Below are positions 24,932 to 47,830 of a DNA stretch of 64,000 nucleotides, in pieces. A program made the translations under genes and the position numbers. Each line of letters opens with the position of its first letter. The first letter of the stretch is position 1. The DNA lies in contig NZ_AZUI01000001.1 of assembly GCF_000526995.1 (NCBI RefSeq), forward strand, positions 2,976,001-3,040,000. The letters are read 5' to 3'. Below the pieces are notes generated by a model. The model had not been told where the DNA came from. It saw nothing but the letters and a program-made list of their open reading frames with translations, and made no database searches. This stretch comes from Lacrimispora indolis DSM 755. GTDB lineage: Bacteria > Bacillota > Clostridia > Lachnospirales > Lachnospiraceae.

Positions 24932-25129
24932 AAATACTTTGCTTCCGTTGTGAAGCTGGCAGAAAACCATTGGCCCCAAATAAGGATCCTTCCATGAAAT
25001 AAAGATTAAGGCTGCGCCGCTCCAATGGCTCCTGAAGGCCGTTTCTTCACAAGATAAGCTGCAGGATGCATATATTGAATCAGTAGAATAAAATAAGACG
25101 ATTAATTATGCTTAAAGGAGTCGGTGGAA

Positions 25130-32852: not shown

Positions 32853-33524
32853 ATGGAACAGTTAAAGATATTGGTAGTGGATGATGAAGCCAGAATGAGA
32901 AAACTGGTAAAGGATTTTTTAAGTGTAAAAGGTTTTTCTGTGGTCGAGGCCTCCAATGGGGAAGAAGCTGTGGATATCTTTTTTGAACAAAAGGACATTG
33001 TACTGATTATTCTTGATGTGATGATGCCTAAAATGGATGGCTGGGAGACCTGCAAAACCATCCGGAAATATTCCCAGGTTCCCATCATTATGCTGACCGC
33101 AAGAAGCGAAGAGCGTGATGAGCTTCAGGGCTTTGACTTAGGGGTGGATGAGTATATTTCCAAACCGTTCAGCCCAAAGATCCTGGTGGCCCGTGTGGAT
33201 GCCATTTTAAGGCGCAGCAATGCCGTCACCGCAGATGCAGTGGAAATAGGAGGGATCTGCATTGACAAAGCAGCCCATCAGGTCACCATTGACGGTAAGG
33301 ACATTGATTTGAGTTATAAAGAATTTGAGCTTTTGGCTTATTTCCTGGAAAACCAGGGAATTGCCCTGTCCAGGGAGAAGATACTGAACAATGTCTGGAA
33401 TTACGATTACTTTGGAGATGCCCGGACCATTGATACTCATGTAAAAAAGCTGAGAAACAAGATGGGAGAGAAGGGTGATTATATAAAGACTATATGGGGA
33501 ATGGGATATAAATTTGAAGTGTAA
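32853..33524 (+). CDS. OmpR/PhoB-family response regulator
   Basis: A 223-residue two-domain regulator. The receiver has VVDDEARMRKLV, the phospho-acceptor Asp55 in LIILDVMMPKMDGW and the switch Lys in EYISKPFSPKIL. The C-terminal winged helix (about 128-223) contains SYKEFELLAYFLENQG and RTIDTHVKKLRNKMG, the DNA-recognition helix. SD CAGGAGG precedes ATG. It is co-transcribed with the sensor kinase that begins 28 bases downstream. Target genes unknown. Confidence 0.95.
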   Translation: MEQLKILVVDDEARMRKLVKDFLSVKGFSVVEASNGEEAVDIFFEQKDIVLIILDVMMPKMDGWETCKTIRKYSQVPIIMLTARSEERDELQGFDLGVDEYISKPFSPKILVARVDAILRRSNAVTADAVEIGGICIDKAAHQVTIDGKDIDLSYKEFELLAYFLENQGIALSREKILNNVWNYDYFGDARTIDTHVKKLRNKMGEKGDYIKTIWGMGYKFEV

Positions 33525-33551
33525 GGAAAGGATATCATTTAAGGTGAGTGA

Positions 33552-35126
33552 ATGAAACATTCCATCAAAGCGCGTTTTGCCATAATTTTTGTATGTCTGA
33601 TGGCCTTTGTCCTTATGTCCACATGGTGTGTGAACAACTGGTTTCTGGAGAGCTTTTACACCAGGGATAAGGTGCGCACCCTGGAGAGGGCCTATACGCA
33701 GATCGACAAGGTGGTGGCACAGGCCAATGACAGCGGGAAGGGGATCATTGATTATTACAAGGATACCTATGACCCGAATTTTAAAAATGAAGGCCCTGCT
33801 CAGAAGATGTTCCGGGTCATGGGAGAAAAATACAATCTGATGATGGTGCTGATCGACAGCACCACAGACGAGGCCCTTATGTCCACAAACGGAGATCAGC
33901 AGTTTTTAAGAAACAGGGTGGAGACCTATATATTCGGAAAGAACGTACCCGAAGCCAGTATTTTAAAAAGACATGACAATTATATCGTTCAGAAAACCTA
34001 TGACAGGCGTTCCGATTCTTATTATCTGGAAAGCTGGGGGTATTTTTCTGACAATAAAACGATTTTTCTCATCTCCGTCCCCCTTGCCAGCATCCGGGAA
34101 AGTGTGCTGCTGGCAAACCGGTTCCTGGCCTATGTGGGTGTGGCAGCTTTGTTTATAGGAAGTATATTTATATACTTTACGACAAAAAGAATGATCTCTC
34201 CCATCCTTCAGCTTGCCAATCTGTCAGAGAAAATGTCGGCGCTGGATTTTGACGCGAAGTACACCGGCACAGAGATAGATGAGATCGGAGTGTTGGGAAA
34301 CAGCATGAATCAATTGTCTGATACATTGAAGGATACCATTGGGCAGCTGCGGGCGGCCAATGAAAAGCTGCAGAAGGATATTGATGAAAAGATAAAAATC
34401 GATGAAATGCGCAAGGACTTTATCGCCAACGTTTCCCACGAACTAAAGACTCCCATCGCGCTTATTCAAGGATATGCGGAGGGACTTACGGAAGGAATGG
34501 CAGAGGATCCTGACAGCAGGGATTATTACTGCGGGGTCATCATGGATGAGGCAGGTAAAATGAATACCATGGTCCGTCAGCTTCTTAATCTCACTGCTCT
34601 TGAGTTCGGCAATGACAGCATTCAGCCGGAACGCTTCGATTTGACTGAGCTGATCCGGGGTGTCATCAATTCGGCCGGTATTTTGATCCAGCAGAAGGAG
34701 GCAGAGGTGAAGCTGGAGGATTGCGGTCCCATATTTGTGTTTGCAGACGAATTTAAAATAGAAGAAGTTATTACAAACTATTTAAATAATGCCCTTAATC
34801 ATTTGGAGGGAGAACGAAAAATCGTGGTCACGGCAGAAGAAAACGGAGAAGAAGCTCTTGTAACCGTGTTTAACACCGGCCAGAATATTCCGGAGGAAGA
34901 CTTACCAAATCTTTGGACTAAGTTTTTTAAAGTGGATAAAGCACATACCAGGGAGTATGGGGGAAGTGGTATTGGGCTTTCTATTGTTAAGGCTATTATG
35001 GATTCCCATGGGAAGTCTTGCGGTGTCCGGAATGTGATGGGTGGGGTGGAGTTTTGGTTTACTTTGGATTGTTGTAAAGAAGGTTTAGAAATGGGTGCGC
35101 TGCAGATTGATAGGGCTGTGAAATGA
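33552..35126 (+). CDS. Membrane sensor histidine kinase
   Basis: 524 residues. TM1 is about residues 8-28 and TM2 about 192-212, flanking a ~160-residue extracellular sensor domain without recognisable motif. HAMP follows (about 213-265), then the dimerisation domain with the phospho-acceptor His296 in FIANVSHELKTPIALIQGY. The HATPase shows N-box NYLNNALNHL, a G1-like VFNTGQNI and GGSGIGLSIVKAIM. Partner of the upstream regulator. SD AAGGTGAG lies before ATG 33552. The stimulus is unknown. Confidence 0.94.
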   Translation: MKHSIKARFAIIFVCLMAFVLMSTWCVNNWFLESFYTRDKVRTLERAYTQIDKVVAQANDSGKGIIDYYKDTYDPNFKNEGPAQKMFRVMGEKYNLMMVLIDSTTDEALMSTNGDQQFLRNRVETYIFGKNVPEASILKRHDNYIVQKTYDRRSDSYYLESWGYFSDNKTIFLISVPLASIRESVLLANRFLAYVGVAALFIGSIFIYFTTKRMISPILQLANLSEKMSALDFDAKYTGTEIDEIGVLGNSMNQLSDTLKDTIGQLRAANEKLQKDIDEKIKIDEMRKDFIANVSHELKTPIALIQGYAEGLTEGMAEDPDSRDYYCGVIMDEAGKMNTMVRQLLNLTALEFGNDSIQPERFDLTELIRGVINSAGILIQQKEAEVKLEDCGPIFVFADEFKIEEVITNYLNNALNHLEGERKIVVTAEENGEEALVTVFNTGQNIPEEDLPNLWTKFFKVDKAHTREYGGSGIGLSIVKAIMDSHGKSCGVRNVMGGVEFWFTLDCCKEGLEMGALQIDRAVK

Positions 35127-35467: not shown

Positions 35468-35896
35468 ATGATTATAGGTTATACAGCAGGCGTTTATGAT
35501 TTGTTCCATATTGGCCATTTGAATTTGCTGAAAAACGCAAAAGGAATGTGTGATAAATTAATTGTTGGTGTTACGACAGATGATTTAGTAATATATAAAG
35601 GGAAGCATGCATTGATTCCTTTTGAAGATCGCCTTGAGATTGTGAGAAGCGTAAAGTATGTTGATGCAGTTGTACCTCAATGCGACATGGATAAACTCAC
35701 TATGTGTAAAAAATTAGATGCTACAGTTTTATTTGTAGGAGATGACTGGTATGGATCGGAGAAATGGAAGGAATATGAAAAGGAATTTGCTAAGGCTGGA
35801 ATAAAGATTATCTATTTCCCATACACCAAAGGAGTGTCATCAACAATTATCTCAGAAACATTGATTGGAGCCAGGGATAAGAGGGAAGAAGGTTAA
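35468..35896 (+). CDS. TagD-like cytidylyltransferase
   Basis: A 142-residue nucleotidyltransferase. GYTAGVYDLFHIGHLNLLK contains the HxGH motif, VGDDWYGSEKW is the middle block, and YTKGVSSTIISE is the (R)xxxISTT-like phosphate loop. The family includes glycerol-3-phosphate cytidylyltransferase (TagD), choline- and ethanolamine-phosphate cytidylyltransferases. It would make a CDP-activated alcohol or amino-alcohol. SD GAGGAAGGG precedes ATG. It begins an AT-rich group of three genes (ATP-pyrophosphatase and DUF362 follow) upstream of flagellin, and could supply the CDP-linked donor for the CDP-glycerol-phosphotransferase-like protein at 43023; this link is inference. Confidence 0.85.
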   Translation: MIIGYTAGVYDLFHIGHLNLLKNAKGMCDKLIVGVTTDDLVIYKGKHALIPFEDRLEIVRSVKYVDAVVPQCDMDKLTMCKKLDATVLFVGDDWYGSEKWKEYEKEFAKAGIKIIYFPYTKGVSSTIISETLIGARDKREEG

Positions 35897-35969
35897 TATG
35901 GAATTTTGAAATTTTATGGCACATGGATTTTAAGTTTAAATAGATTTTTTAATGACGGAGGGTATAAAA

Positions 35970-37031
35970 ATGAACGTAGATAAAGAGTATTGTATGAGTT
36001 CATTTTTGATGTATAGAACGATTGCGGACAGAAATAAACAATTCTCGGAAAAAGTGATTCCTAATTTATATACAGATATTACTGAGAAAACGGTAATAAA
36101 AGATAGTAATGATTTGGAAAAAGCATTAGAAACCCGAATTGAGATGTGCACAAAGGATGGCAAAGCTGCTTTGGCCTTGTCAGGAGGTATTGATTCGGCT
36201 GTATTAGCGAAATTTATGCCGGAGGGTTCTACGGTATATACTTTTAAATGCATTGTTCCTGGTATAAAAGTTATAGATGAAACGGTTGCGGCTGCAAAGT
36301 ATGCAAAAGAATGTGGATTGATTCACAAGATTATTGAGATTTATTGGGAAGATTTTGAAAAGTTTGCACCTATTTTAATGTTACATAAAGGAGCGCCTAT
36401 ACACTCTATAGAAGTACAAATATATAAGGCATGTCTAAAGGCTAAAGCGGATGGATTTGAAAGAATTATCTTTGGTGAAAGTGCTGATTTAAATTATGGT
36501 GGGTTAAGTGGACTCATGTCTAAAGATTGGAAGGTTGGAGAGTTTATTGATAGATATTCTTATGTGAAACCTTATTATGTACTGAAAAACCCTGTGTCAG
36601 TATATGAACCAATAAAACAATATGAGAATGATGGATATATCAATGTTCATGAGTTTTGCCGTGGATTTTTTCTGGAAGAGGCTATGGGATCCTATTCAAA
36701 TGCGTGTCAGACGGCAGGAATAGGGCTGGAAACCCCATATGTCACTACACGGTTGGATGTACCTTTAGATTTACAAAGAATTAGAGAGGGTGAAAATAAA
36801 TATTTAATACGAGAGGTGTTTAAACGGCTGTATAGTGATTTTGAAGCTCCTGTAAAAACACCTATGCCTAGACCGACGAATGAATGGCTTATGGATTGGA
36901 GTGGTCCTTCTAGACCGGAATTTTATCCTCACTGTACAGATGATATGACCGGAGATCAAAAATGGTTAGTAATGGCCTTGGAGATGTTCCTTAATGTGTT
37001 GGAAAGAGGATATATAAATGAAAATAAATAA
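35970..37031 (+). CDS. Asparagine-synthase-like ATP-pyrophosphatase
   Basis: A 353-residue protein with the PP-loop ALALSGGIDSAVLAKF and the downstream FGESADLNYGG block of the asparagine synthase C-terminal domain. The N-terminal ~70 residues are not a glutamine-amidotransferase domain (no Cys2, too short), so ammonia or an amine would come from elsewhere. The protein would adenylate a carboxylate and form an amide or similar bond. Start ATG 35970 follows GGAGGG; the upstream ATG 35952 lacks an SD. It overlaps the DUF362 gene by 14 bases. Its place beside a cytidylyltransferase suggests amide formation on a small molecule destined for CDP activation or glycan attachment (inference). Confidence 0.78.
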   Translation: MNVDKEYCMSSFLMYRTIADRNKQFSEKVIPNLYTDITEKTVIKDSNDLEKALETRIEMCTKDGKAALALSGGIDSAVLAKFMPEGSTVYTFKCIVPGIKVIDETVAAAKYAKECGLIHKIIEIYWEDFEKFAPILMLHKGAPIHSIEVQIYKACLKAKADGFERIIFGESADLNYGGLSGLMSKDWKVGEFIDRYSYVKPYYVLKNPVSVYEPIKQYENDGYINVHEFCRGFFLEEAMGSYSNACQTAGIGLETPYVTTRLDVPLDLQRIREGENKYLIREVFKRLYSDFEAPVKTPMPRPTNEWLMDWSGPSRPEFYPHCTDDMTGDQKWLVMALEMFLNVLERGYINENK

Positions 37032-38250
37032 GGTGGCTATTGAAAAATGTTATGACTACTCTGATTTTGAAATTGAACATTCTTTAAATAAACTTATGTT
37101 AGATTTAGGCTTGAATGTAGATAATCCGTTTGAAGAATTCATAAAACCGGGGATGTCCGTTTTTATTAAGCCCAATTGGGTAGCTTCGAGATGGAGGGCT
37201 TCATGCGATCATGAAGGTACACTGTATTCTGTAATTACACATGAAAAAATAATAGAAGCTGTGGCTGATAGAGCTGCGAAGGCTCTTGGCGGTAAAGGCC
37301 AAATTATTATTGGAGATAATCCTTCAATAGATGCAGATTTTTCAGAATTAATGGAGTTTACTGGAATAAAAAGATTAGAAACAAAGTATTCAGTACCATT
37401 GAGAGTCATAGACATGCGTCCATTAGTTTGTGATGATTTAAAATATTATGGACAACGTGATAAGATGGTGACACAAACGGGCGATCCAAATGGAGAGGTG
37501 CAGGTTAATTTAGGTAAAGATTCAATGCTTTATAATGTTGATTCAACCCTATTTCGAGGAGTTTTTAATGAGCGTGAAGAGACCATAAAATCTCATACAG
37601 GAGAAAACCAATTATACACTTTTGGCCGTAGTCTTTATGATGCTGATGTATATATATCCATTCCTAAAATGAAAACACACCAAAAGGTAGGAGCCACACT
37701 GAATTTAAAAGGGTTAGTTGGCAGTGTAACTGATAAGAATCAGTTAGTACATTGGAAAGTTGGCTCCCCAGAGTTGGGTGGAGATGAATATCCGAATTTG
37801 CAGGCATTTGAAGCTGCTAAAAAGGCAAGAGTAACGCATAGGGGTTCTTGGCCAGGAAATGATACAATATGGAGGATGGTTGTTGATTTGTACAAATCAA
37901 TGCATAAAAAAAAGCGTAGTTATTTTACAATTATTGATGGTGTCATATCAGGTGAAGGGCAAGGACCCTTTTGCACTACAACAAAATATTCAAATATACT
38001 TGTGGCCGGCCAAGACCTACTTTCCACTGATATTGTAACTGTAAAGCTTATGGGCCTGAATCCCTCTAAAATAAGTTATCTAGATTATTTTTTGGAAAAC
38101 GGTAGTGTAAGTTATGATGAGATAGAGGTAAAATCTACAATAGATCTTTTTAATAAGCCAGGAGGGGAATTTCTCGAAGCACATGACCGATATCTTGATT
38201 TTAAGGTTGTTCCACAGTGGGAGTGTATAAAAACAGAGTTAAAGAGTTAG
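37018..38250 (+). CDS. DUF362 domain protein
   Basis: A 410-residue DUF362 protein. MSVFIKPNWVASRWR and VITHEKIIEAVADRAAKAL match the family's opening (IKPN ... THPE), followed by IIIGDNPSIDAD. SIPKMKTHQKVGATLNLKGLVG and FTIIDGVISGEGQGP are the other family hallmarks. No CxxCxxC ferredoxin segment is present, unlike many DUF362 proteins. The biochemical role of DUF362 is not established. The gene overlaps the ATP-pyrophosphatase gene, so they very likely act in one pathway. Codon use and base composition are AT-rich compared with the rest of the window, suggesting acquisition. Confidence 0.8.
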   Translation: MKINKVAIEKCYDYSDFEIEHSLNKLMLDLGLNVDNPFEEFIKPGMSVFIKPNWVASRWRASCDHEGTLYSVITHEKIIEAVADRAAKALGGKGQIIIGDNPSIDADFSELMEFTGIKRLETKYSVPLRVIDMRPLVCDDLKYYGQRDKMVTQTGDPNGEVQVNLGKDSMLYNVDSTLFRGVFNEREETIKSHTGENQLYTFGRSLYDADVYISIPKMKTHQKVGATLNLKGLVGSVTDKNQLVHWKVGSPELGGDEYPNLQAFEAAKKARVTHRGSWPGNDTIWRMVVDLYKSMHKKKRSYFTIIDGVISGEGQGPFCTTTKYSNILVAGQDLLSTDIVTVKLMGLNPSKISYLDYFLENGSVSYDEIEVKSTIDLFNKPGGEFLEAHDRYLDFKVVPQWECIKTELKS

Positions 38251-38523
38251 ATTATCTAATCTTAAAAAAAATCCCCAGGTTTTGTCTGAAAGTTACCTTT
38301 ATACGCAGATAGCAGATTTTCTTATACAGTTATATATATCATGGAATTCTTCGTAAGGTGAATAACAATAAAAAAGAAAGTGGATAAAGTGAAAAAATCA
38401 AAAACAACAATTTGGAATATGAGAATAAAAAAAATTATTCCTCACTATTAATTGTGCGGTAGCTGACTATATTTTACATTTCGGATATAGTATGATATGA
38501 CTATATAAAACGGTGGGTTTTGT
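38251..38523. other. AT-rich gap after the DUF362 gene
   Basis: About 270 AT-rich bases with no gene-sized frame. TTTACA at 38473-38478 with TATGAC at 38496-38501 (17-base spacing) is a possible promoter reading into the decayed gene and yjfB. Nothing else stands out. Confidence 0.35.
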
Positions 38524-38758
38524 ATGGAATTAATCAAAGAGGATTTATATGTCACAGCTGCATTGATGGAGAAGAAGCTAAAGCCCATTTATGATTAGCT
38601 TGAAATACTGTTAATTAAACAGGACATTACAACTCGTAAACTTAAAGATATTAATTTCAGGTTAACAAGTTTAGAAGTATACTAGCAAAAAAATAGGAAA
38701 AGTCAATGATAAAGTCGAAACATTGGTTGCCGTTTTGGAAGATAGGAATATTTTATAA
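38524..38758 (+). pseudogene. Decayed small coiled-coil gene
   Basis: ATG 38524 opens MELIKEDLYVTAALMEKKLK, then hits TAG. The same frame continues LEILLIKQDITTRKLKDINF and stops again. A second frame then gives KIGKVNDKVETLVAVLEDR to a stop at 38758. Together they read as one ~77-residue heptad-rich protein broken by a nonsense codon and a frameshift near 38685. The original function is unknown. Confidence 0.5.
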
Positions 38759-38809
38759 AAAAAAGGATTAATATTGTTTAAAAAAAGGGATTTATTTGGA
38801 GATGAAAGT

Positions 38810-39001
38810 ATGGATATTGGTGCGATCAGTATGGAAATGAGCCTTGCAAGAGTACAGCAGAGTGCAGGAATCAATGTTGCGAAAAAGGCCATTGATTCCC
38901 AGGAACTTGCCGCCGCCGGATTGCTTCAGATGGCTGATGCGGCGGTTTCCAGGCAACCCCCTACAGACGGGATTGGTCAGTTTGTGAATGTGAGAGCTTA
39001 A
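38810..39001 (+). CDS. YjfB-family putative motility protein
   Basis: 63 residues from ATG 38810: MDIGAISMEMSLARVQQ ... AGINVAKKAIDSQELAAAGLLQMADA. This matches the small YjfB family (putative motility protein), which in Firmicutes is typically found with flagellar or chemotaxis genes. TTGGAGATG lies upstream as SD. Upstream codons from 38774 are in frame but lack a good start. It sits directly before flagellin. Precise role unknown. Confidence 0.8.
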   Translation: MDIGAISMEMSLARVQQSAGINVAKKAIDSQELAAAGLLQMADAAVSRQPPTDGIGQFVNVRA

Positions 39002-39003
39002 GG

Positions 39004-39036
39004 AAAGGGGGATATGCAGATGTATATCCTCCTTTT
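39004..39036 (+). terminator. Terminator after yjfB
   Basis: A 12-bp stem (AAAGGGGGATAT / ATATCCTCCTTT, one G-U pair) with an 8-base loop, ending in TTTT. Confidence 0.8.
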
Positions 39037-39262
39037 CAACTAATGACATGGTCCTAACCTGTTCTCAGCTGCCATAAAATATTTTAAATATTTCAAAAAA
39101 AGACTTATTTTTTATTCCTATCGGTACGATAATGTAGATGAAAGGAAGTAGACTTCCCAAAGACACAAGTGTCAAATGTCTGGAATCATGAATGCGGATG
39201 GTACCCCGCAGGATTCCATCAAAAGCATTACTTATTTCCTGATTCAGGAAAAACATATCATG

Positions 39263-39302
39263 CAGGGAAAAGGAATTCCCTGTAACACATTCAAGGAGGA
39301 AA
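39263..39302 (+). promoter_or_regulatory. Candidate CsrA-binding leader of the flagellin mRNA
   Basis: A hairpin CAGGGAA-AAGGAA-TTCCCTG (39263-39282) places AGGA in its loop, the preferred CsrA site, and the SD AAGGAGGA (39293-39300) provides a second GGA. The Bacillus subtilis hag leader has the same two-site layout, where CsrA blocks translation until FliW relieves it. Binding here is inferred. The rest of the ~270-base gap contains only a CGATAATG element at 39127 resembling a sigma-28 -10. Confidence 0.5.
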
Positions 39303-39308
39303 TTATCT

Positions 39309-40562
39309 ATGAGAATTCAACACAACATCGCTGCAATCAACTCTTACAGACAGTTAGGCAGCAATAACACAGCAGTATCCAAGAACCTTGAGAAATTATC
39401 TTCTGGTTACAGAATCAACCGCGCAGGCGATGACGCTGCAGGTCTTGCTATCTCTGAAAAGATGAGAGCACAGATCACAGGTCTTGAGACTGCTCAGAAA
39501 AATGCCAACGATGGTATCTCTTTAATCCAGACCGCTGAAGGTGCATTAACAGAGGTTCACTCCATGTTAAACCGTATGGTTGAGCTGGCTGGACAGTCTG
39601 CAAATGGAACCTATCAGGATGCTGTTGACCGTGAAAACCTTCAGAAGGAAGTTAAATCTTTAACAGATGAAATTGATCGTATCTCTCAGGGTACAAACTT
39701 CAATGGTATCAATCTGTTAGATGGCAGCATGGGTAAGTCATCAACAAAGCTTAGCACCCAGCCTGCAGCAGGAACTGTAATTGGAAGTACAGTAGTTACA
39801 AAGTTTTCTGGAATGTCTCTGGCGTCAGGTGATACAGTTTCAGTTGCAGCTGGTACCGCAACTAATGGTGCTGGTGCTAAGACGAACGAAGTTGTTGTTA
39901 CGATTTTAAAGGAAGATGGATCTTCTAAGGATATCGTTATTGATCTTGAAAAAGCTGTTAAAAAGTCTGATGGAACCGCTCTTGGAACAGGTGCCCTTGG
40001 TACTGGAGATACTGGTGTAATTGACTTAACTGAAGCTGGTTTAGGTAAGATTGAATTTACAGCTAACGGTGCTGATACAGCTGAATCACTTGCAACTGGT
40101 CTTGTAGGTAAGTTTGCAGGACAGGCAACACCGGCGGCAGACTCTGGTGTCACAGGTGATGGTACTGGTTTGACATTGCAGATTGGAGATACAGCTGATG
40201 ACTTTAATAAGTTGACAGTTAGTGTCAAGAGTATGAGCTCCAAGTCCTTAGGAATCAATGGAGTTGACTTAAGTACTCAAAGTGGCGCTTCCAGTGCGAT
40301 TAAACTGATTAAGAATGCTATTAATACTGTATCCTCCACTCGCGGTGATTTGGGTGCTTTACAGAACCGTCTGGAGCACACCATCAACAACTTGGGTGTA
40401 ACTTCTGAGAACATGACAGCAGCTGAGAGCCGTATCCGTGATGTTGACATGGCTCAGGAAATGATGAACTATACAAAGAACAATATCCTTGTACAGTCTT
40501 CCCAGGCTATGCTTGCTCAGGCAAATCAGCTTCCTCAGGGAGTATTACAGTTATTACGGTAA
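39309..40562 (+). CDS. hag: Flagellin
   Basis: 417 residues. The conserved N-terminal D0/D1 region (about 1-140) starts MRIQHNIAAINSYRQL and includes LSSGYRINRAGDDAAGLAIS. The C-terminal D1/D0 region (about 325-417) includes SRIRDVDMAQEMMNYTK and ends in LLR. The central variable domain (about 140-325) is rich in Thr, Ser, Gly and Ala, a surface-exposed region suited to O-glycosylation. Codon use is highly biased, as expected for an abundant protein. SD AAGGAGGA; the leader has a CsrA-type hairpin. Glycosyltransferase and modification genes lie immediately downstream and upstream. Confidence 0.97.
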   Translation: MRIQHNIAAINSYRQLGSNNTAVSKNLEKLSSGYRINRAGDDAAGLAISEKMRAQITGLETAQKNANDGISLIQTAEGALTEVHSMLNRMVELAGQSANGTYQDAVDRENLQKEVKSLTDEIDRISQGTNFNGINLLDGSMGKSSTKLSTQPAAGTVIGSTVVTKFSGMSLASGDTVSVAAGTATNGAGAKTNEVVVTILKEDGSSKDIVIDLEKAVKKSDGTALGTGALGTGDTGVIDLTEAGLGKIEFTANGADTAESLATGLVGKFAGQATPAADSGVTGDGTGLTLQIGDTADDFNKLTVSVKSMSSKSLGINGVDLSTQSGASSAIKLIKNAINTVSSTRGDLGALQNRLEHTINNLGVTSENMTAAESRIRDVDMAQEMMNYTKNNILVQSSQAMLAQANQLPQGVLQLLR

Positions 40563-40577
40563 TTGTTTCTTTCATTT

Positions 40578-40610
40578 CCCCCGGAAGGATTTTCTTCCGG
40601 GGGTTATTTT
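40578..40610 (+). terminator. Terminator after flagellin
   Basis: A 10-bp stem CCCCCGGAAG / CTTCCGGGGG with a 6-base loop, followed by TTATTTTAT. It separates flagellin from the modification genes. Confidence 0.88.
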
Positions 40611-40635
40611 ATCGTAAATCAGGAGGAGATTTTCT

Positions 40636-42948
40636 ATGAAGCCTACAGTTCGGCTTTCCCAGTGTATGATTGTTAAGAATGAGGAGAAGAATATCCGGCA
40701 TGCTTTGAGCTGGGGAAAGGGAATTGTCTGTGAACAAATTGTTGTGGATACCGGTTCATCTGATAATACTGTCCGGATTGCAGAGGAAATGGGGGCAAAA
40801 GTGTTCTATTTCCCTTGGAACGATGATTTTTCCGCTGCAAAAAATTTTGCCCTGGAGCAAGCGCAGGGAGATTGGATTGCGTTTTTGGATGCAGACGAAT
40901 ATTTTTCGGAAGAAGATGCCAGGAAGATCTTGCCTTTGCTTAGCAGGGTTGAAAAGCAGTTTTCCCTCAAGAAAAGACCTAGAATTATAAGGAGCATGTT
41001 AGCCAACTTAAATGATTCGGGAGAGGTGTTTTCTACTGCTATGCAGAGCCGTATATTTAAGAATACACCCTTACTCCGTTATGAAAACCGGATTCATGAA
41101 CAGCTTTCCTTTAGGGGAGGTGATAAGGTTGTAACTCTTGATGCAACAGATATGCTTACCATCTATCACACAGGATATAGTGATGCTGCCTATAAAGAGA
41201 CTGGAAAAATAGGACGTAATCTTTCTCTGCTGGAGCAGGAGGTGGAAAGGGAACCAGAAAATTATAATGCCTGGTCCTATCTGGGTGATACACTTTTGGC
41301 TGAGGGGAAACTTAAAGAGGCTGAGTCCGCTTACATCCGTGTGATGGAACATATGGGAGAGTCTGTCATGATAGATAGGAAGGATGCGACTTATTGCAAC
41401 TTACTCAAAATTAAGTATATGACCCGTTGGGAAGGAGAGAAAGAAGTCCTTTCTATATATCAGAAAGCCAAAGACAATGATTGCATTTCCCCAGATGTGG
41501 AATATTGGCTGGGATTTTGGTATTATCAACAGGGAATGGAAGAGAAGGGACGTTTTTATCTGGAACTTGCACTTTCGCAACTGGATAAGCACCGGATGCT
41601 CAGCAATCTGGCTATAGCAGGGAATCTCTCCAGTGTATACAGGAAGATTTTTATGTCATACAAAAAGCTGGGGCAACCGTCTGACATGATCCGATACGGA
41701 GTTTTAGCTTTAAGAGCAAACCCTTATCAGGAAGCTGTGGTAAAAGAAATTCTTCTACTTTTGAAAAAGGAATCCGGGGAAGAAGAGACGGCTCAGGCTA
41801 CTTTTGGATTTTTGTCGAAACTTTATGATCTTTCTTCTGCAAAGGATCGGCTTTTTCTGTTGAAGTCTTCTAAGCTGGCTTATTTTTCTGCCTTAGAGGA
41901 GCGGATTTACGGTTTGTTGTCTTTGGAAGAAAGAAAGCTATTAGAACAAAATCAGGCATTGCTGTATTCTGCTTCAGAGGAAGAGGTCAGGGAAGAATTT
42001 CCAGGCTTTGACTGCCGTAATGAACTGGATTGGGAATATCTTGCTTTTATGAAGGGTGTTCATTCCAAGGAGATCCCTGAGCTGATGGATTCGTTTAAAA
42101 ATAAATTGTTTGAGTTGAACAAGGCTTATGGCGGAGTAATAGATACTTATGCAGAAAACTTTTCCCGTTTTCACCTTTGGGGCGAGATAAGACCGGCGGA
42201 AGATAATTACAGAGCATTGGAAAGAAGAATTGCCTGTGTAAAAAATAGCTGGGAAGACTTTTTGTGGCTTTATCAAAAGTTGTCTGATTATCAGTCAAAA
42301 AAGATACTTACAGCGATTTTGAAGAACTGGATATCTTTGGATACAGACAGACTTTCTCGAATAAAGAAAGGGCAGGAGGATTACTATGATTTGGACCTTA
42401 TCCCAGAGGGAAGGGGAAAGGTTTTTGTGGATGCTGGTGCTTATTTTGGAAATACCAGTCTTAATTATATAAAAACTTATGGAAGAGACTATAGGGAGAT
42501 TATTTGTTATGAACCCAATGACTCCTCAGCCAGGAAGCTGGAGGAAAATCTGAAAGGATTTGAAAACATCCAGATACGGCCCATGGGGCTTGACTCCTTC
42601 CAAGGGGAAAAACCTTTTGATGCCAGTGGAGATGATCCAATTATGTCTCATATTACTTCTGATAAGGAAGCCATTCCGGTCAGAACCGTTTCTCTTGATT
42701 TGGATGTGGCCGAAGCAATCGATATTTTGAACATTGATGTCGATGGATATGAGAGCCAGGTTTTGATGGGGGCAAAAGGTCATATAAATAAGAATCATCC
42801 AAATCTTATTATTGCACTGTACTATGACTTCGAGGATATAATAAAGATTCCGCGCATGATAGAAGCGATGAATCCTGATTATAAATTTTATTTACGTTAT
42901 TATGGAGGGGACCTGATTCCCACGAATTTTATGCTGTATGCAGTGTGA
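40636..42948 (+). CDS. GT2 glycosyltransferase-TPR-FkbM methyltransferase fusion
   Basis: 770 residues in three parts. Residues 1-~200 are a GT-A glycosyltransferase (MIVKNEEKNIRHALSW, VVDTGSSDNTVRIAEE, DxD in AFLDADEYF). About 205-400 are TPR-like helical repeats (YNAWSYLGDTLLAEGKLKEAE). From about 590 to the end is an FkbM-type SAM methyltransferase: VFVDAGAYFGNTSLNYI (SAM loop), ICYEPNDSSARKLEENL and ILNIDVDGYESQVLMGAK. The enzyme could both transfer a sugar and O-methylate the product. Its position right after flagellin and the TPR scaffold argue for modification of flagellin; that is inference. SD AGGAGGAG. It reads into the CDP-glycerol-transferase-like gene. Confidence 0.86.
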   Translation: MKPTVRLSQCMIVKNEEKNIRHALSWGKGIVCEQIVVDTGSSDNTVRIAEEMGAKVFYFPWNDDFSAAKNFALEQAQGDWIAFLDADEYFSEEDARKILPLLSRVEKQFSLKKRPRIIRSMLANLNDSGEVFSTAMQSRIFKNTPLLRYENRIHEQLSFRGGDKVVTLDATDMLTIYHTGYSDAAYKETGKIGRNLSLLEQEVEREPENYNAWSYLGDTLLAEGKLKEAESAYIRVMEHMGESVMIDRKDATYCNLLKIKYMTRWEGEKEVLSIYQKAKDNDCISPDVEYWLGFWYYQQGMEEKGRFYLELALSQLDKHRMLSNLAIAGNLSSVYRKIFMSYKKLGQPSDMIRYGVLALRANPYQEAVVKEILLLLKKESGEEETAQATFGFLSKLYDLSSAKDRLFLLKSSKLAYFSALEERIYGLLSLEERKLLEQNQALLYSASEEEVREEFPGFDCRNELDWEYLAFMKGVHSKEIPELMDSFKNKLFELNKAYGGVIDTYAENFSRFHLWGEIRPAEDNYRALERRIACVKNSWEDFLWLYQKLSDYQSKKILTAILKNWISLDTDRLSRIKKGQEDYYDLDLIPEGRGKVFVDAGAYFGNTSLNYIKTYGRDYREIICYEPNDSSARKLEENLKGFENIQIRPMGLDSFQGEKPFDASGDDPIMSHITSDKEAIPVRTVSLDLDVAEAIDILNIDVDGYESQVLMGAKGHINKNHPNLIIALYYDFEDIIKIPRMIEAMNPDYKFYLRYYGGDLIPTNFMLYAV

Positions 42949-43022
42949 TTTATCGGGGTGTTGAAGGTACGACATTTTTAAACTCTCATTTTTGCAAGGA
43001 AAATACAGGAAGGAAGTCGAAC

Positions 43023-44486
43023 ATGAGAAAGCGACATCAGCGGCAACTATTGGAATTGCTCGAAACAATCAGGGAAGCGCAGTCGGAGCATTTATATGAA
43101 AGTTGTCAAAGTGGTGCTCTTCATATTGGTGAATTTATTGAGAAAATAGAAGGCAAAGGTACAAATGCGGTTGAACTGCTGGAAGAATATTGTGATCTAT
43201 TATATAGGGCATATAACGGAGAAATAGGCGAAAAGCCGTTGCGGCGGCAACTGAATAAGATTGAAAATAGTATAAAGTTTGAATTAAAACCCGATAAGTA
43301 CAAGGCTCTTTTTCTTCCATACTATGATAATACATGGGAAACTATGAAAAGCGTATACGATGTGTTTTCTAGCGATCCTATGTTTGAAACTGAAGTGGTA
43401 ATCATTCCTATTATGCGTAATACAAACGTAGGCACAAAGTTCATTTGGGAGGATTATCTTACCCCTGCAGGGATTCCAAACACGCACTATGACGCATACA
43501 GTTTTGAGGAAGATTTGCCGGATGTTGTGTTTTATAATCAGCCTTATGACGGAGTTAATATCCCGAAGTTTCAGTCTCAAAACATTAGAAAGAATACGGA
43601 CTGCATGGTTTATATACCTTATGGCATAGCCGCTTCCAGTGCATTGGGAAAGTCGTATGAAAACAATCTTACCGGATTGGATTCTATACAGCGTTGTGAT
43701 ATATATATTGCTCAGAGTAAGGCGTTTTGTAAACAATATACGAAAGGTACTCTGTTGGAGAGAAAAGCGTTGGAATTTGGGCATCCAAAATGTGACTGCC
43801 TATATGATGCCAAGATACACGGAAATTTTACCCGATATCCGGAATGGGAGTCGGCAATTGGGAAACGCCGCGTAATTTTTCTGAATACCCACTATACTTA
43901 TATGGCAGAAGGAGTTGTGACTCATCCTGGTGTGCGCCGGCTCATTGATTCGGTCGCGCAAAACGAAAATTTATTCCTTATATGGCGGCCACACCCACAG
44001 GCATTCCTGATGAAGATGTCCATCGAAATGCAGGTCATGCTTGATTTTGCACATGCGCACGAGAGAATGATTTTAGATCGTACGCCAAGCATTACACCTG
44101 CTTATATGTATTCCAATGCTGTTGTTTCACTGTTTCCAAGCTCTATCGTGATGGATTCGTTGTTTCTGGATCTTCCGGTATTTCTTTTGGGGAGAGAAGA
44201 TTCCAAAAGTGCACTGGCGGCGCGTTTGAGAAGCCCTTTTTACAGTGCAATTGCTCACGAGAATTTCGATGAGCCACTGCCGGATGATGGCTCAGATGTA
44301 GAAAGTATGCGGTTATATACGGAACAGAGCGTGTTCGCCCCATTGGATGCATTTCTGCGAGAGATTGAAAATGGCGAGGACTCAAAACGTGAAGCGCGTG
44401 CCGAATTCCGCATACGGGAATTCCCGAATTCGGACGGTACCATAGCAAAGAAGATTCTTGAGAGTGTTAAGGCTAGATTGGGTTAA
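43023..44486 (+). CDS. CDP-glycerol:glycerophosphotransferase-like protein
   Basis: 487 residues. The N-terminal ~90 residues are helical. The rest resembles the TagB/TagF GT-B fold: KALFLPYYDNTWETMKSVY, YIPYGIAASS, ALEFGHPKCDCLYD and FLIWRPHPQAFL, then PAYMYSNAVVSLFPSSIVMDSLF, matching the family's phosphate-binding HP...S block. Family members transfer an alcohol-phosphate from a CDP donor. In C. difficile a protein of this family (CD0243) builds the phosphodiester of the type A flagellin glycan. ATG 43023 follows AAGGAAG; the in-frame GTG at 42945 overlaps the preceding stop and lacks an SD. No membrane segment is seen, consistent with cytosolic protein modification. Confidence 0.78.
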   Translation: MRKRHQRQLLELLETIREAQSEHLYESCQSGALHIGEFIEKIEGKGTNAVELLEEYCDLLYRAYNGEIGEKPLRRQLNKIENSIKFELKPDKYKALFLPYYDNTWETMKSVYDVFSSDPMFETEVVIIPIMRNTNVGTKFIWEDYLTPAGIPNTHYDAYSFEEDLPDVVFYNQPYDGVNIPKFQSQNIRKNTDCMVYIPYGIAASSALGKSYENNLTGLDSIQRCDIYIAQSKAFCKQYTKGTLLERKALEFGHPKCDCLYDAKIHGNFTRYPEWESAIGKRRVIFLNTHYTYMAEGVVTHPGVRRLIDSVAQNENLFLIWRPHPQAFLMKMSIEMQVMLDFAHAHERMILDRTPSITPAYMYSNAVVSLFPSSIVMDSLFLDLPVFLLGREDSKSALAARLRSPFYSAIAHENFDEPLPDDGSDVESMRLYTEQSVFAPLDAFLREIENGEDSKREARAEFRIREFPNSDGTIAKKILESVKARLG

Positions 44487-44536
44487 AGTAATATATATTA
44501 GCTGTATTCGTTATGGAACAGAACAGGGGTAGGCAT

Positions 44537-46582
44537 ATGAATAATGAACAGATTAAACTTGTCATTTGGGATTTGGATGAAACATTTTGGCATGGCACGC
44601 TTGCTGAGGAGGGTTACATTACTATACCTCAAAACAATATTAATATTGTGAAAGAGTTGACAAATCGGGGGATTGTCAACTCGATTTGTTCTAAAAATGA
44701 CTTTGATAAGGCCAAGGCTGTATTATGCGAGGCACAGATTTGGGACTACTTTGTGTTTCCGCATATCGAATTCACGCCAAAAGGTGGGGCGGTGAAGAGG
44801 ATTATAGCTGATATGCAGCTTCGTGCGCCCAATGTTTTGTTTGTAGATGATAATAACACAAATCTTGAGGAAGTGAGTTTTTACAATCCTGGAATACAAA
44901 TTCTTGCTGCACAAGACCTTAACCGTTTGTGTGATCTTCCTGGTGCTACAGGGAAGCCGGATCCGCAGCATAAACGCCTGGAACAGTACAAATTATTGCA
45001 GGAGCGTTTTAGTGCCCGCCAATATTCCAACGATAATGAGGATTTTCTGCGTAAGAGTGATATTCATATTTGCGTGTCACCTACAGCGCCTGAAGATGCT
45101 GAGCGCGTTCATGATATGATTATGCGTACCAATCAGTTGAACTTCACAAAAAAGCGCATTTCGTTTGACGAGGTAAATGACTTGTTGCGAAACCCCGCTT
45201 TCGAGAGTGCTACAATTCGTGTGTATGATCGTTTTGGAGACCATGGTATTATTGGCTGGTATTGTCTTAAAGGAGACGAACTGGAACATTTCTTGTTTTC
45301 GTGCAGAATTATAAACCTTGGCATTGAGCAATATGTGTATGCAATGTTGGGTTTCCCGCATTTGATGATTTCAGGTGAAACAGCATCGCTCGTATCACCC
45401 AATATTTCCGTTCCTGATTACATAACTTTGGATGATGAAACCAGGGTACGACCTGTATCGGCTCAATCCTGCTCGGATGTTTCCAAGTTCGATAAATTGC
45501 AAATCTACGCACTTGGTGCATGTGACTTGTATTACATGGTCGGACATATGGCGTTGCCGTTCACAAACGTGCATTTCGAATGTAATACGTTTAATGGTGA
45601 TGCTCGCGGTGTGAATGTTGCGACTGAATACATACGCAGTTGCTTTGAAATGAATGAACAGGAAAAGATCTACTGTCGCACTCATTTCCATAACTATACC
45701 GGACGAACCGCATTTGCCACGAAGATTTTTGAGAAGGAATATGATTATGTATGTATGTCGTTCCACGATGATTTCGCTTTAGATATTTATCAGAGTAAAG
45801 AATTTCCTCAAATGCGCGTTGTATTATCAAACAGTAAAAGCGGTTCCTATACCCCTATCCTAAACGTTGAGGATGGGGAAAGGAAAGAGTGGCTTTCCCG
45901 AAATTTTATATCTTTGGGACTGATATCTCCTCAACGGTTTCGTGAAAACTTGGAATGGCTTGCAGAGCGTCTACCAGACAAAACACGACTTGTTCTAATG
46001 ACCGGGCCGGAGTATGATTATTTTCGTGATAGTGAACCACACAATGCTGAATTCCACATGCAAATCATGAGTTTAAATAAGGTTATTCGAGATTTTTGTG
46101 CCAATAATCCACGAGCTGCCTTTGTAGAGATGAATGATGTAATTTATGAACGAGGTCATTTTACTGATTTTATCATGCATTTAAAGCCAGAACGAAGTTA
46201 TACGCTTGCAATGAAAATGTTAGAGGCCATGGCAGGAATGCCTTCTACCAAAGATGCAAAAAAAGATTTACCAATCGGCTTGCGCCGCTTGGTTTTATGG
46301 AGCGACGAAATTTCTCTTTTGCCGAATTATCTTGCACTTTGTGCTATGGGTGCAAAACCTGATGATATTATTACCATACCGTCATTGGAAGCTTCAAAGC
46401 TGGAAGTAATGTCAATAGCTCCTCATATGTTGTATGGACAAAGCGGCAAATATTTTGTTTTGCTTACACCGGGTGGAGAACTTGAATATCGGCGAACTGC
46501 ACTTGAGTTCTATGGTTTTGGAGTGGGTGTGGACTATTATGAACTTGAACAAATGCCGTTCGCTTTGGAATGGAGAGAATAA
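44537..46582 (+). CDS. FkbH-like HAD/GNAT protein with C-terminal SGNH-like domain
   Basis: 681 residues. Residues 1-~150 are a HAD-IIIC (FkbH) domain: VIWDLDETFWHGTL carries the DxDxT catalytic site (Asp12, Asp14), and LFVDDNNTNLEEV is the distal acidic motif. About 170-280 look like the GNAT-like half usual in FkbH proteins (MIMRTNQLNFTKKRIS, YDRFGDHGIIGWY). About 310-580 resemble an SGNH/GDSL-type domain (YALGACDLYYM at the start, FIMHLKPE at the end). A further ~80 residues follow. FkbH proteins load phosphoglycerate-derived units in polyketide and glycan pathways. Start ATG 44537 after AGGGGTAGG. Last gene of the downstream flagellin-modification group. Confidence 0.75.
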   Translation: MNNEQIKLVIWDLDETFWHGTLAEEGYITIPQNNINIVKELTNRGIVNSICSKNDFDKAKAVLCEAQIWDYFVFPHIEFTPKGGAVKRIIADMQLRAPNVLFVDDNNTNLEEVSFYNPGIQILAAQDLNRLCDLPGATGKPDPQHKRLEQYKLLQERFSARQYSNDNEDFLRKSDIHICVSPTAPEDAERVHDMIMRTNQLNFTKKRISFDEVNDLLRNPAFESATIRVYDRFGDHGIIGWYCLKGDELEHFLFSCRIINLGIEQYVYAMLGFPHLMISGETASLVSPNISVPDYITLDDETRVRPVSAQSCSDVSKFDKLQIYALGACDLYYMVGHMALPFTNVHFECNTFNGDARGVNVATEYIRSCFEMNEQEKIYCRTHFHNYTGRTAFATKIFEKEYDYVCMSFHDDFALDIYQSKEFPQMRVVLSNSKSGSYTPILNVEDGERKEWLSRNFISLGLISPQRFRENLEWLAERLPDKTRLVLMTGPEYDYFRDSEPHNAEFHMQIMSLNKVIRDFCANNPRAAFVEMNDVIYERGHFTDFIMHLKPERSYTLAMKMLEAMAGMPSTKDAKKDLPIGLRRLVLWSDEISLLPNYLALCAMGAKPDDIITIPSLEASKLEVMSIAPHMLYGQSGKYFVLLTPGGELEYRRTALEFYGFGVGVDYYELEQMPFALEWRE

Positions 46583-46666
46583 AATTGGGTTGAAAATAAT
46601 GTTAGCGATAAGAATACTATGATGGTATTACTATGCGAGAATGGAATGGAGGAGGAGTAATCTACA

Positions 46667-46686
46667 GGGGCTTTAGCCCCTTTTTT
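46667..46686 (+). terminator. Terminator ending the flagellin-modification genes
   Basis: GGGGC-TTTA-GCCCC followed by six T residues. Confidence 0.88.
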
Positions 46687-46805
46687 GTACATAAAACAGA
46701 GAAACGGACCCTAAAGAGTCTGTAATCAGTGATATCGTTAATTACTTTAATAACCAATTACACTACTAAATATTATACCGAACTCAGCCAGAACTACTAA
46801 CCGGT

Positions 46806-47166
46806 TTTTCTGTTGAGTTTGAAAGTTCTGGTTTCTGATAATGCCTCTGTCTCACTGGCAAAGCGTGAATTGGAGAGTTTTGATTGCACAAAGTGCATCA
46901 AGATTTTCTTCCAAAGGCAAAATATTCAGCAGTAGAACTAAAGATATGTTTGAGATTTTGATCTATGCTTATCCTAAAAATATCTATTCGTCAAAGAAAA
47001 TTGAAACTGTTTGCGGAAGAAACATTATTTTCATGGAACTATTGACAAGCCCAAAACCACGAATCGTAGTACTATTGCAAGTCTATATACCAGTATTTTT
47101 CCAACGTCTGTAAAAACTGTTCTATTCGATGATCTGTTATTCGGCAGAAATAAAAGAATTTTTTAG
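46806..47166 (+). mobile_element. Decayed IS1182-family transposase (N-terminal part)
   Basis: Three consecutive frames together spell the opening of an IS1182/DUF772 transposase: VSDNASVSLAKRELESFDCT, then DMFEILIYAYPKNIYSSKKI with ETVCGRNIIFMELL, then NRSTIASLYTSIFP. At least two frameshifts and the loss of the catalytic DDE part make it a relic. No terminal repeats were identified. Confidence 0.7.
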
Positions 47167-47337
47167 ATAAAACAGTATTTCTAGGCATGAGAAAATTGGA
47201 AGTCTATGTGATATATATTTCATAATATATTAAGTGCGGTAAATTAATTTTGTTTCTAGATTATATTTGATAATACGAAAAGTAAATTTCCAAACAACCA
47301 CTCGGTAAATCACATTCTCCCACCCCATCCTATTTTC

Positions 47338-47366
47338 TTTACAAACCCCCTTCTTAATTGTATAAT
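47338..47366 (+). promoter_or_regulatory. Strong sigma-A promoter upstream of the fla operon (distal)
   Basis: TTTACA (47338-47343), 17-base spacer, TATAAT (47361-47366). It would transcribe a 46-codon frame lacking a start codon and then continue towards flgB. Confidence 0.65.
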
Positions 47367-47440
47367 GGAAAAAAACACCAATCTACAAAATTCGTCATTT
47401 TTTGCATCGAGTTTCAATAACAACAATAAATAAATAAAAA

Positions 47441-47596
47441 AAGGAGGAAATATAACCGGATAAATTAAAAATCAGCGACCAAAATCAGCTCGGAGACTTG
47501 AAAAAGCTTCAGATAAAGCCTAAAAAGGGCCGAATATCCCCCAAAGTTTATCCCTTGGCTGGAAATAATTTACACCTATTTCCTGAAGAAATGTAG
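47441..47596 (+). pseudogene. Start-less 46-codon frame behind a perfect SD
   Basis: AAGGAGG (47441-47447) is followed 5 bases later by an in-frame TAA and then 46 open codons to TAG at 47594. The predicted peptide is Lys-rich (LKISDQNQLGDLKKLQIKPK then GRISPKVYPL). No ATG, GTG or well-placed TTG exists. It looks like a small gene that lost its start codon, or a chance frame. Family not recognised. Confidence 0.35.
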
Positions 47597-47667
47597 ATAA
47601 ATCAAGAGTTATTGCATCTTACGGCAGAAAATAGTCTAAGATTCCGGACTATAATGGCAGAACTTTC

Positions 47668-47696
47668 TTGACATTATTTGTAATAAAATGTAAAAT
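47668..47696 (+). promoter_or_regulatory. Sigma-A promoter of the fla/che operon (proximal)
   Basis: A consensus TTGACA (47668-47673), 17-base spacer, TAAAAT (47691-47696), about 135 bases before flgB. The 5' UTR is too short and lacks the conserved blocks for a GEMM-type c-di-GMP riboswitch. Confidence 0.75.
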
Positions 47697-47830
47697 AAAG
47701 TAGAAAAAATTACAAAAAAAAATCGATTTTGGGAAAAGGCTGTCGATATTTAACTGTTATGCAGTTTTTATTCAGCTAAATACACTTCTCAGGCGCTTTG
47801 CCGGAAGTGATAAAAGTGAGGAACAAAATT

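What the first reader, a model, noticed from the sequence alone, without database searches (positions are those of the whole stretch)
35468..46582. Candidate undescribed flagellin-modification system around the flagellin gene
Seen: a cytidylyltransferase, a PP-loop ATP-pyrophosphatase, a DUF362 protein, flagellin, a GT2-TPR-FkbM fusion, a CDP-glycerol-phosphotransferase-like protein and an FkbH-like fusion lie in one AT-rich block with yjfB. Known: C. difficile type A flagellin glycan uses a glycosyltransferase plus CDP-type phosphotransferase and methyltransferase to attach a phosphodiester-linked methylated amino acid. Inference: here a CDP-activated, amide-containing moiety is made by the upstream trio and attached by phosphodiester to a flagellin glycan. 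No described pathway with this gene set is known to me.
Basis: partly seen in the sequence, partly recalled or inferred. Interest (0 to 1): 0.85.

Follow-up and report, generated by a model that had tools for sequence, protein, structure and literature searches.

The report
CDP-donor gene trio beside flagellin
Next to the flagellin gene of a gut/soil Clostridium relative sits an imported three-gene cassette of a kind that many gut bacteria keep beside their surface-sugar genes; it probably makes an activated small acid (glyceric-acid-type) that is hung by a phosphate onto surface sugars, and here perhaps onto the flagellum, but that last step is unproven.

Summary
The genes are real and where stated. 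The block is two units. (1) hag–GT2/TPR/FkbM–TagF-like (CDPT)–FkbH-fusion: a C. difficile type-A-like flagellin-glycan island, variable in the genus. (2) An AT-rich cassette, cytidylyltransferase–PP-loop–DUF362 (CCT–PPL–D362), inserted between a histidine kinase and yjfB; its PPL is in 1 of 25 genus genomes. The cassette is not flagellin-specific: in 80 related loci CCT lies within 600 bp of PPL in 66, a LicD or TagF-like CDP-donor transferase within 2.5 kb in 56; one genome fuses PPL and CCT. Flagellin is near in 3 of 80. D362 is optional (27 of 80). CDPT, of the same family as TagF-like neighbours elsewhere, is the window's only such transferase. "CDP-activated" is well supported, "amide" plausible. 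A precedent is in print: the Paenibacillus alvei S-layer cluster (tagD, asparagine-synthase homologue wsfA, TagF-domain wsfC), whose glycan carries glyceric acid 2-phosphate. I propose a CDP-glycerate/glyceramide donor. Against flagellin dedication: genome G012 keeps hag–GT2–CDPT–FkbH without PPL or any TagD-sized gene. Partly supported; a new variant of a known kind.

The parts
32853..35126 (+). response regulator and histidine kinase genes that flank the insertion (recurrent upstream border of the genus hag locus)
   Evidence: syntenic in genus loci; HK->YjfB is 48-86 bp in the 6 genus loci where both were detected
35468..35896 (+). CCT: TagD-like cytidylyltransferase, the only TagD-type PF01467 gene of the genome by size and score
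   Evidence: PF01467; best PDB sequence match glycerol-3-phosphate cytidylyltransferase; 5 PF01467 matches in the genome, the other four in frames of 168, 211, 358 and 442 aa
35970..37031 (+). PPL: asparagine-synthase-like PP-loop enzyme without a glutaminase domain
   Evidence: PF00733 only; 70% mean column identity over 19 sequences
37018..38250 (+). D362: DUF362 protein, overlaps PPL by 14 bp
   Evidence: PF04015; relative within 600 bp of PPL in 27 of 80 loci
38810..39001 (+). YjfB-like small protein, next to HK in relatives
39309..40562 (+). flagellin (hag)
   Evidence: PF00669/PF00700; residues 141-330 hold 47 S/T of 190
40578..40603 (+). 11-bp-stem terminator-like hairpin between hag and the modification genes
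   Evidence: pattern match only; 8 found, 8.3 expected in shuffles
40636..42948 (+). GTM: GT2 + TPR + FkbM methyltransferase fusion; a GT2 relative is the usual neighbour of hag in the genus
   Evidence: PF00535, PF05050; GT2 beside hag in 11 of 14 genus loci that show both HK and hag
43023..44486 (+). CDPT: TagF/CD0244-like phosphotransferase; only LicD/TagF-like protein found in the window
   Evidence: relatives hit PF04464; matches model of TagF-like neighbours of CCT-PPL, 8.9e-27; 74% relative beside hag in G012
44513..46582 (+). FkbH-domain fusion (DxDxT-type HAD motif kept, motif recalled) with a C-terminal part; GDSL is a weak hit in 4 of 24 members scanned
   Evidence: TIGR01686 143.9 bits, just under cut-off
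46666..46681 (+). terminator-like hairpin after the FkbH gene
   Evidence: pattern match only

Best explanation
A horizontally acquired CDP-donor cassette has landed in a type-A-like flagellin-glycosylation island. Proposed steps: (1) PPL, an AsnB-like ligase, uses ATP to amidate the carboxylate of a common phospho-acid, most simply 2- or 3-phosphoglycerate; (2) CCT couples the phosphate to CMP, giving CDP-glycerate or CDP-glyceramide (the order of 1 and 2 is unknown); (3) D362 is an optional tailoring step; (4) the TagF-like CDPT moves the phospho-moiety from CDP onto the sugar that the GT2 of GTM has put on flagellin Ser/Thr, with O-methylation by FkbM and perhaps acylation by the FkbH fusion. 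Shown by sequence: gene families, CCT-PPL coupling, adjacency to LicD/TagF-like transferases, presence in one genome of the genus sample. Inferred: the glycerate-type substrate (a P. alvei cluster with the same gene kinds makes glyceric acid 2-phosphate), the amide, and transfer to flagellin rather than to another surface glycan.
For: CCT within 600 bp of PPL in 66 of 80 loci, anywhere in 77 of 80; LicD within 2.5 kb in 34, TagF-like in 22, either in 56 of 80. PPL-CCT fused in one 516-residue frame without a stop. CDPT is the only LicD/TagF-like protein found in the 64-kb window and matches the model of TagF-like neighbours of other CCT-PPL pairs at 8.9e-27; the model was built without it. Both of the two L. 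plantarum plasmid records viewed (of six matched) show glycosyltransferases-'CDP-glycerol glycerophosphotransferase'-CCT-PPL-flippase. P. alvei slg cluster: tagD, wsfA asparagine-synthase homologue, wsfC; glycan adaptor has GroA-2-phosphate (PMC2943079, section 15 and passages). D-glyceramide 2-phosphate occurs in the Providencia alcalifaciens O22 O-polysaccharide (passage and cited title in PMC6222762). L020: flagellin-MptE-like (Maf, recalled name)-flagellin-Polysacc_synt_2-CCT-LicD-PPL. In the 25 genus genomes PPL is in G000 alone, and G000's only TagD-sized CCT is the window's.
Against: G012 has hag-GT2-CDPT(74%)-FkbH fusion without PPL and without a TagD-sized PF01467 gene (judged from frame lengths), so CDPT does not need this trio there. 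24 of 80 PPL loci show neither LicD nor TagF-like within 2.5 kb; only 9 of these 24 have a flank shorter than 2.5 kb. None of the longest contigs of the 10 best PPL homologues matches one of the 31 best CDPT homologues by length. The trio has its own GC content and a 560-bp gap before yjfB, so it may be a separate unit serving another glycan. WsfA-PPL orthology was not tested. PPL lacks a glutaminase domain, so an amide is not certain.
Confidence: 0.45

Rival explanations
1. The trio makes a CDP-donor for a cell-wall or capsule polymer elsewhere in this genome, and its place next to hag is an accident of insertion; CDPT and FkbH run on another donor.
For: 77 of 80 PPL loci show no flagellin in their flanks (up to 10 kb a side; 35 of 80 have at least 9.9 kb on both); plasmid capsule clusters carry the pair; G012 keeps the CDPT-FkbH island without PPL; different GC of the two units.
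Against: CDPT, 4.8 kb downstream, is the only LicD/TagF-like protein found in the window; L020 and L051/L053 show the same module near flagellin. LicD genes elsewhere in G000 were not searched.
Confidence: 0.35
2. The trio feeds CDPT, but the moiety is an amino-acid or other phospho-acid derivative (as in the CDP-threonine model for C. difficile), not glycerate; PPL joins an amino acid or amine rather than ammonia.
For: C. difficile type A ends in N-methylthreonine via CDP-threonine by hypothesis (PMC10714395, sections 6 and 7; PMC11833859, passages); PPL has no glutaminase domain.
Against: In Saccharibacteria such as L002 the pair stands with LicD and no D362 (not every neighbour was annotated), which favours a universal phosphometabolite; the P. 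alvei product with the same gene kinds is a glyceric acid phosphate.
Confidence: 0.2

Closest known systems
Paenibacillus alvei CCM 2051 S-layer glycan (slg) cluster: tagD, wsfA (asparagine synthase homologue), wsfC (TagF-domain protein); GroA-2-phosphate on the glycan adaptor (PMC2943079)
   Same: same three enzyme kinds; a protein-linked surface glycan; a phosphodiester-linked small acid
   Different: S-layer protein and tyrosine linkage rather than flagellin; no DUF362, FkbM or FkbH in the passages seen; sequence orthology not tested here
Clostridioides difficile type A flagellin glycan (CD0240-CD0244) and P. aeruginosa PA1088-1091
   Same: glycosyltransferase beside flagellin, TagF-like transferase with partial resemblance to UDP-GlcNAc 2-epimerase (2 of 25 CDPT members hit PF02350; CD0244 likewise), methyltransferase
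   Different: donor genes are TagD-like CCT + AsnB-like PPL + DUF362 in place of CD0241/CD0242; FkbH fusion extra; methyltransferase is a fused FkbM domain
C. difficile type B flagellin: sulfonated peptidylamido-glycan (PMC5207245, abstract)
   Different: cap is taurine, alanine and glycine, with no phosphodiester named in the abstract
CCT-PPL-LicD/TagF cassettes of surface-polysaccharide clusters, e.g. Lactiplantibacillus plantarum plasmids
   Same: related CCT and PPL (about 65% identity for PPL)
   Different: no flagellin; no D362 in the two records viewed; LicD or shorter TagF-like transferase
Geobacillus flagellin glycosylation islands (PMC5109656, passages)
   Same: variable island beside flagellin; one strain has tagD, some have fkbM
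   Different: the term search of that paper found no asparagine-synthase gene; different sugars

Membership tests
C. difficile type A flagellin glycan pathway | GT2-type glycosyltransferase directly beside flagellin | tested here: met
   40636-42948, PF00535; homology to CD0240 itself not tested
C. difficile type A flagellin glycan pathway | TagF-like phosphotransferase (CD0244 kind) | tested here: met
   9 of 25 family members hit PF04464; match to a TagF-like model 8.9e-27; the window protein alone has no Pfam hit
C. difficile type A flagellin glycan pathway | CD0241 (PSP-like) and CD0242 (nucleotidyltransferase modelled on GDP-mannose pyrophosphorylase) | tested here: not met
   none of the 7 proteins of the block shows such a family hit; TagD-like CCT and PPL stand instead; the rest of the genome was not searched for them
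P. alvei-type glyceric acid phosphate decoration (tagD-wsfA-wsfC) | TagD-like CCT + asparagine-synthase homologue + TagF-like transferase in one glycan cluster | tested here: met
   same families in the window and TagF-like within 2.5 kb in 22 of 80 loci; sequence match to wsfA not tested
P. alvei-type glyceric acid phosphate decoration (tagD-wsfA-wsfC) | glycan carries glyceric acid 2-phosphate | not testable with these tools
   needs MS/NMR of L. indolis flagellin
LarA / nickel-pincer 2-hydroxy acid racemases (for D362) | fold/clan relationship | tested here: inconclusive
   DUF362 and DUF2088 share Pfam clan CL0471 (PMC11770544, passages); hhalign against 4 LarA-like proteins gives probability 0.2%, though H221 and K231 align with the His and Lys of EPH...GRK and H245 lies one column from the ANH His (catalytic role of these residues recalled); structure prediction unavailable
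LarA / nickel-pincer 2-hydroxy acid racemases (for D362) | NPN cofactor genes present in hosts | tested here: inconclusive
   LarC family in 13 of 16 genomes: 8 of 8 family genomes with PPL, four with and four without D362 in the stretch read; absent from 3 of 8 other D362-bearing genomes
Maf-type flagellin glycosylation | MptE-like (PF01973) protein beside flagellin | tested here: not met
   none among the 7 block proteins; present in L020

The most novel reading that the evidence does not exclude
The CCT-PPL(-DUF362) cassette makes a nucleotide donor that I have not seen described, CDP-glyceramide (or a close amide), used across several bacterial phyla and some archaea of the gut; in L. indolis it decorates flagellin by phosphodiester, and the optional DUF362 protein is a LarA-clan enzyme that changes the stereochemistry or oxidation of that acid, which would be a first glycan-assembly role for DUF362 (none appears in the titles and abstract starts of the 9 papers listed for DUF362).
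Probability: 0.15. Interest if true: 0.75.

Novelty: new variant of a known kind. Interest (0 to 1): 0.5.

Why it matters
If right, one small cassette explains a CDP-activated surface decoration found from Bacteroidota and Saccharibacteria to Lachnospiraceae and L. plantarum plasmids, gives a substrate hypothesis for an uncharacterised AsnB-like family and for DUF362, and suggests that flagellin-glycan islands can swap CDP-donor cassettes while keeping a TagF-like transferase. In the genus the hag island also appears with quite different donor genes (CCT-Gfo/Idh fusion with two TIM-barrel proteins, a GDPD and a Glyphos_transf, G005), so it is a natural system for testing donor-transferase pairing.

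Tried and rejected
Phosphonate donor in relatives: I first read the ~444-aa CCT fusion of genus islands as PEP-mutase-CCT; Pfam shows CCT-GFO_IDH_MocA, so dropped. NPN-dependence of D362: LarC distribution does not discriminate and the profile comparison is not significant; kept only as a bold reading. A glyceric acid 2-phosphate product would also leave no free C2-OH for a LarA-type reaction. D362 with TagF rather than LicD: 11/9 against 11/25, Fisher p 0.09, not claimed. Flagellar sigma-factor promoter scan: five sites at 10 of 12 in 28000-50000, none upstream of CCT or hag (consensus recalled). E. coli genomes (one Bacteroidota CCT-PPL stretch, DNA, distant) and phages (tblastn with PPL): no match. 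CDPT against plasmids: one Paenibacillus record, 31% over 67%. Literature: flagellin+DUF362 gave one unrelated listing; DUF362+asparagine synthase+cytidylyltransferase and asparagine synthase+LicD+cytidylyltransferase+polysaccharide gave none; FkbH+flagellin+glycosyl gave one hit, seen in the listing only; asparagine synthase+CDP-glycerol+capsular polysaccharide+gene cluster gave two, one of which led to P. alvei. The other (PMC4155827, passages) only shows that AsnB-like enzymes amidate peptidoglycan precursors. The ORF-pruned neighbour count (49 of 76 CCT adjacent, 48 of 76 with a transferase) undercounts because shadow ORFs masked CCT; one search replaces it. In the PPL tree 74 rows were used (one per locus, 320-400 aa), so some loci are missing; L003_9 has a very long branch and an unsure place.
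Full report
What is there. All genes of the finding are present. Homologues put the PP-loop start at or near 35970 and the TagF-like start at 43023. PPL and D362 overlap by 14 bp. Trio GC is 35.7-36.0%, the three genes after hag 41-42%, HK 45%.

Two units. In the genus sample (25 genomes; flagellin in 24) I read hag stretches of most genomes. A usual order is RR-HK-yjfB-hag-GT2-variable genes-flgB. Fourteen genus loci show both HK and hag; GT2 stands beside hag in 11 of them, and HK to YjfB is 48-86 bp in the 6 where both were detected. In the window that distance is 3.7 kb because the trio sits there. PPL is found in 1 of 25 genus genomes (two other matches of about 20 bits are not counted as relatives), 8 of 397 family genomes and 5 of 391 class genomes; G000 is in all three and G231 in both larger samples. 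The variable part differs between members: CCT-Gfo/Idh fusion, two TIM-barrel proteins, GDPD and Glyphos_transf in G005; GT2, radical-SAM/SPASM and pyruvyltransferase in G003.

What the trio does. The single scan of genome contigs returned 80 loci (80 of 96 relatives kept), by record title from Bacillota, Bacteroidota, Actinomycetota, Saccharibacteria, Synergistota, a spirochaete and archaea, among others. With six-frame HMM searches: CCT within 600 bp of PPL 66 of 80, anywhere 77 of 80; D362 within 600 bp 27 of 80; LicD within 2.5 kb 34, TagF-like 22, either 56 of 80; a nearest LicD or TagF-like hit was within 2.5 kb in 56 instances and farther in 9. 24 of 80 have neither within 2.5 kb; 9 of those have a flank under 2.5 kb. 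The models were built from families in the same loci, and no background count of LicD/TagF in other polysaccharide clusters was made. In genome G1034 one 516-residue frame holds PPL followed by CCT. LicD and TagF-like enzymes use CDP-linked donors (established knowledge), so CCT-PPL most likely makes a CDP-linked moiety. D362 changes state about 7 times on the PPL tree, at least 4 by well-supported branches: an optional step.

Flagellin link. Flagellin lies in 3 of 80 loci: L020 at 3.4 kb, with flagellin-MptE-like-flagellin-Polysacc_synt_2-CCT-LicD-PPL, and the near-identical L051 and L053 at 7.4 kb. L051/L053 sit in a well-supported 8-row clade without the window; L020 and the window are drawn apart but on weak branches. 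No chance expectation was computed; 3 of 80 is not a strong statistical association.

The island genes. CDPT is the only LicD/TagF-like protein that the models find in the 64-kb window. It matches the model of TagF-like neighbours of other CCT-PPL pairs at 8.9e-27 (that model was built without it). 9 of 25 scanned family members hit Glyphos_transf and 2 hit UDP-GlcNAc 2-epimerase, the same double resemblance that Claushuis et al. report for CD0244 (PMC10714395, sections 6 and 7). Matches at E<=1e-50 are in 62 of 397 family genomes, about half of the places in frames over 700 aa, and 8 of 398 phylum genomes, own genome included. CDPT and the FkbH fusion travel together: 5 of the 20 best FkbH hits share a contig length with one of the 31 best CDPT hits (longest contigs only), and both stand beside hag in G012. 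G012 lacks PPL and a TagD-sized PF01467 protein (judged from frame lengths), so the pair can occur without the trio. In G000 the window's CCT is the only one of that size. IspD-family matches are alike in the two genomes.

What the moiety may be. The described parallel is the P. alvei slg cluster: tagD, wsfA (asparagine synthase homologue) and wsfC, whose TagF-like domain is held likely to add GroA-2-phosphate to the glycan adaptor (PMC2943079, section 15 and passages). D-glyceramide 2-phosphate is known from the Providencia alcalifaciens O22 O-polysaccharide (PMC6222762, passages); a review names glyceric acid among the phosphodiester-linked parts of some O-antigens (PMC9912281, passages). 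Among solved structures CCT is closest by sequence to glycerol-3-phosphate cytidylyltransferases, and glycerate is glycerol with one end oxidised. I therefore favour CDP-glycerate/glyceramide. The amide, the phosphate position, and the identity of wsfA with PPL are inference.

D362. DUF362 shares Pfam clan CL0471 with the lactate-racemase family (PMC11770544, passages). Profile alignment against four LarA-like proteins (from G000, G012 and G135) puts invariant H221 and K231 of D362 on the His and Lys of the LarA EPH...GRK stretch, with H245 one column from the next His, but the probability is 0.2%. LarC is present in 8 of 8 PPL-bearing family genomes and in 5 of 8 other D362-bearing genomes. 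This is a lead only, and a 2-phosphate product would not suit a C2 racemase.

Verdict. Observation confirmed; interpretation partly supported.

Noticed in passing
window 25124-27354: Two tandem proteins (372 and 371 aa) that look by eye like GT2-TPR glycosyltransferases, of the same general kind as the hag-linked one, about 12 kb upstream of hag; no family search was run on them.
   Followed up: no
L124:9195-15046 (G005); similar sizes and order in L127, L131: Hag island with two AP_endonuc_2 TIM-barrel proteins, a CCT-Gfo/Idh fusion, a GDPD and a Glyphos_transf (Pfam checked in L124): looks like another, different CDP-donor system for flagellin, perhaps an inositol- or alditol-like donor.
   Followed up: partly
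L107:9147-14357 (G003): Hag island with GT2, radical SAM/SPASM, polysaccharide pyruvyltransferase and GT2 genes after the hag-linked GT2.
   Followed up: partly
L107:4041-5855, L108:12215-14104, L113:4649-6541 and others: A protein of about 605-632 aa on the opposite strand upstream of hag in several genus members (GT2 by Pfam in L107, the only one checked), absent in the window.
   Followed up: partly
L111:5910-8866 (G018): Two proteins with Laminin_G_3 (one also Big_2) domains in the hag island between the GT2 and flgB.
   Followed up: no
window 46583-47824: 1.2-kb AT-rich (33% GC) stretch without a convincing gene between the FkbH fusion and flgB.
   Followed up: no
L051, L053, L064: PPL next to a PGA_cap (CapA-like) protein in three loci; possibly an alternative partner of the module (Pfam checked in L051 only, the others by clustering).
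   Followed up: partly
G000:C1:2141000-2159000 (L121): A second, longer flagellin-like gene (about 704 aa) elsewhere in the genome, with none of the window's modification genes detected in the 18-kb stretch.
   Followed up: partly
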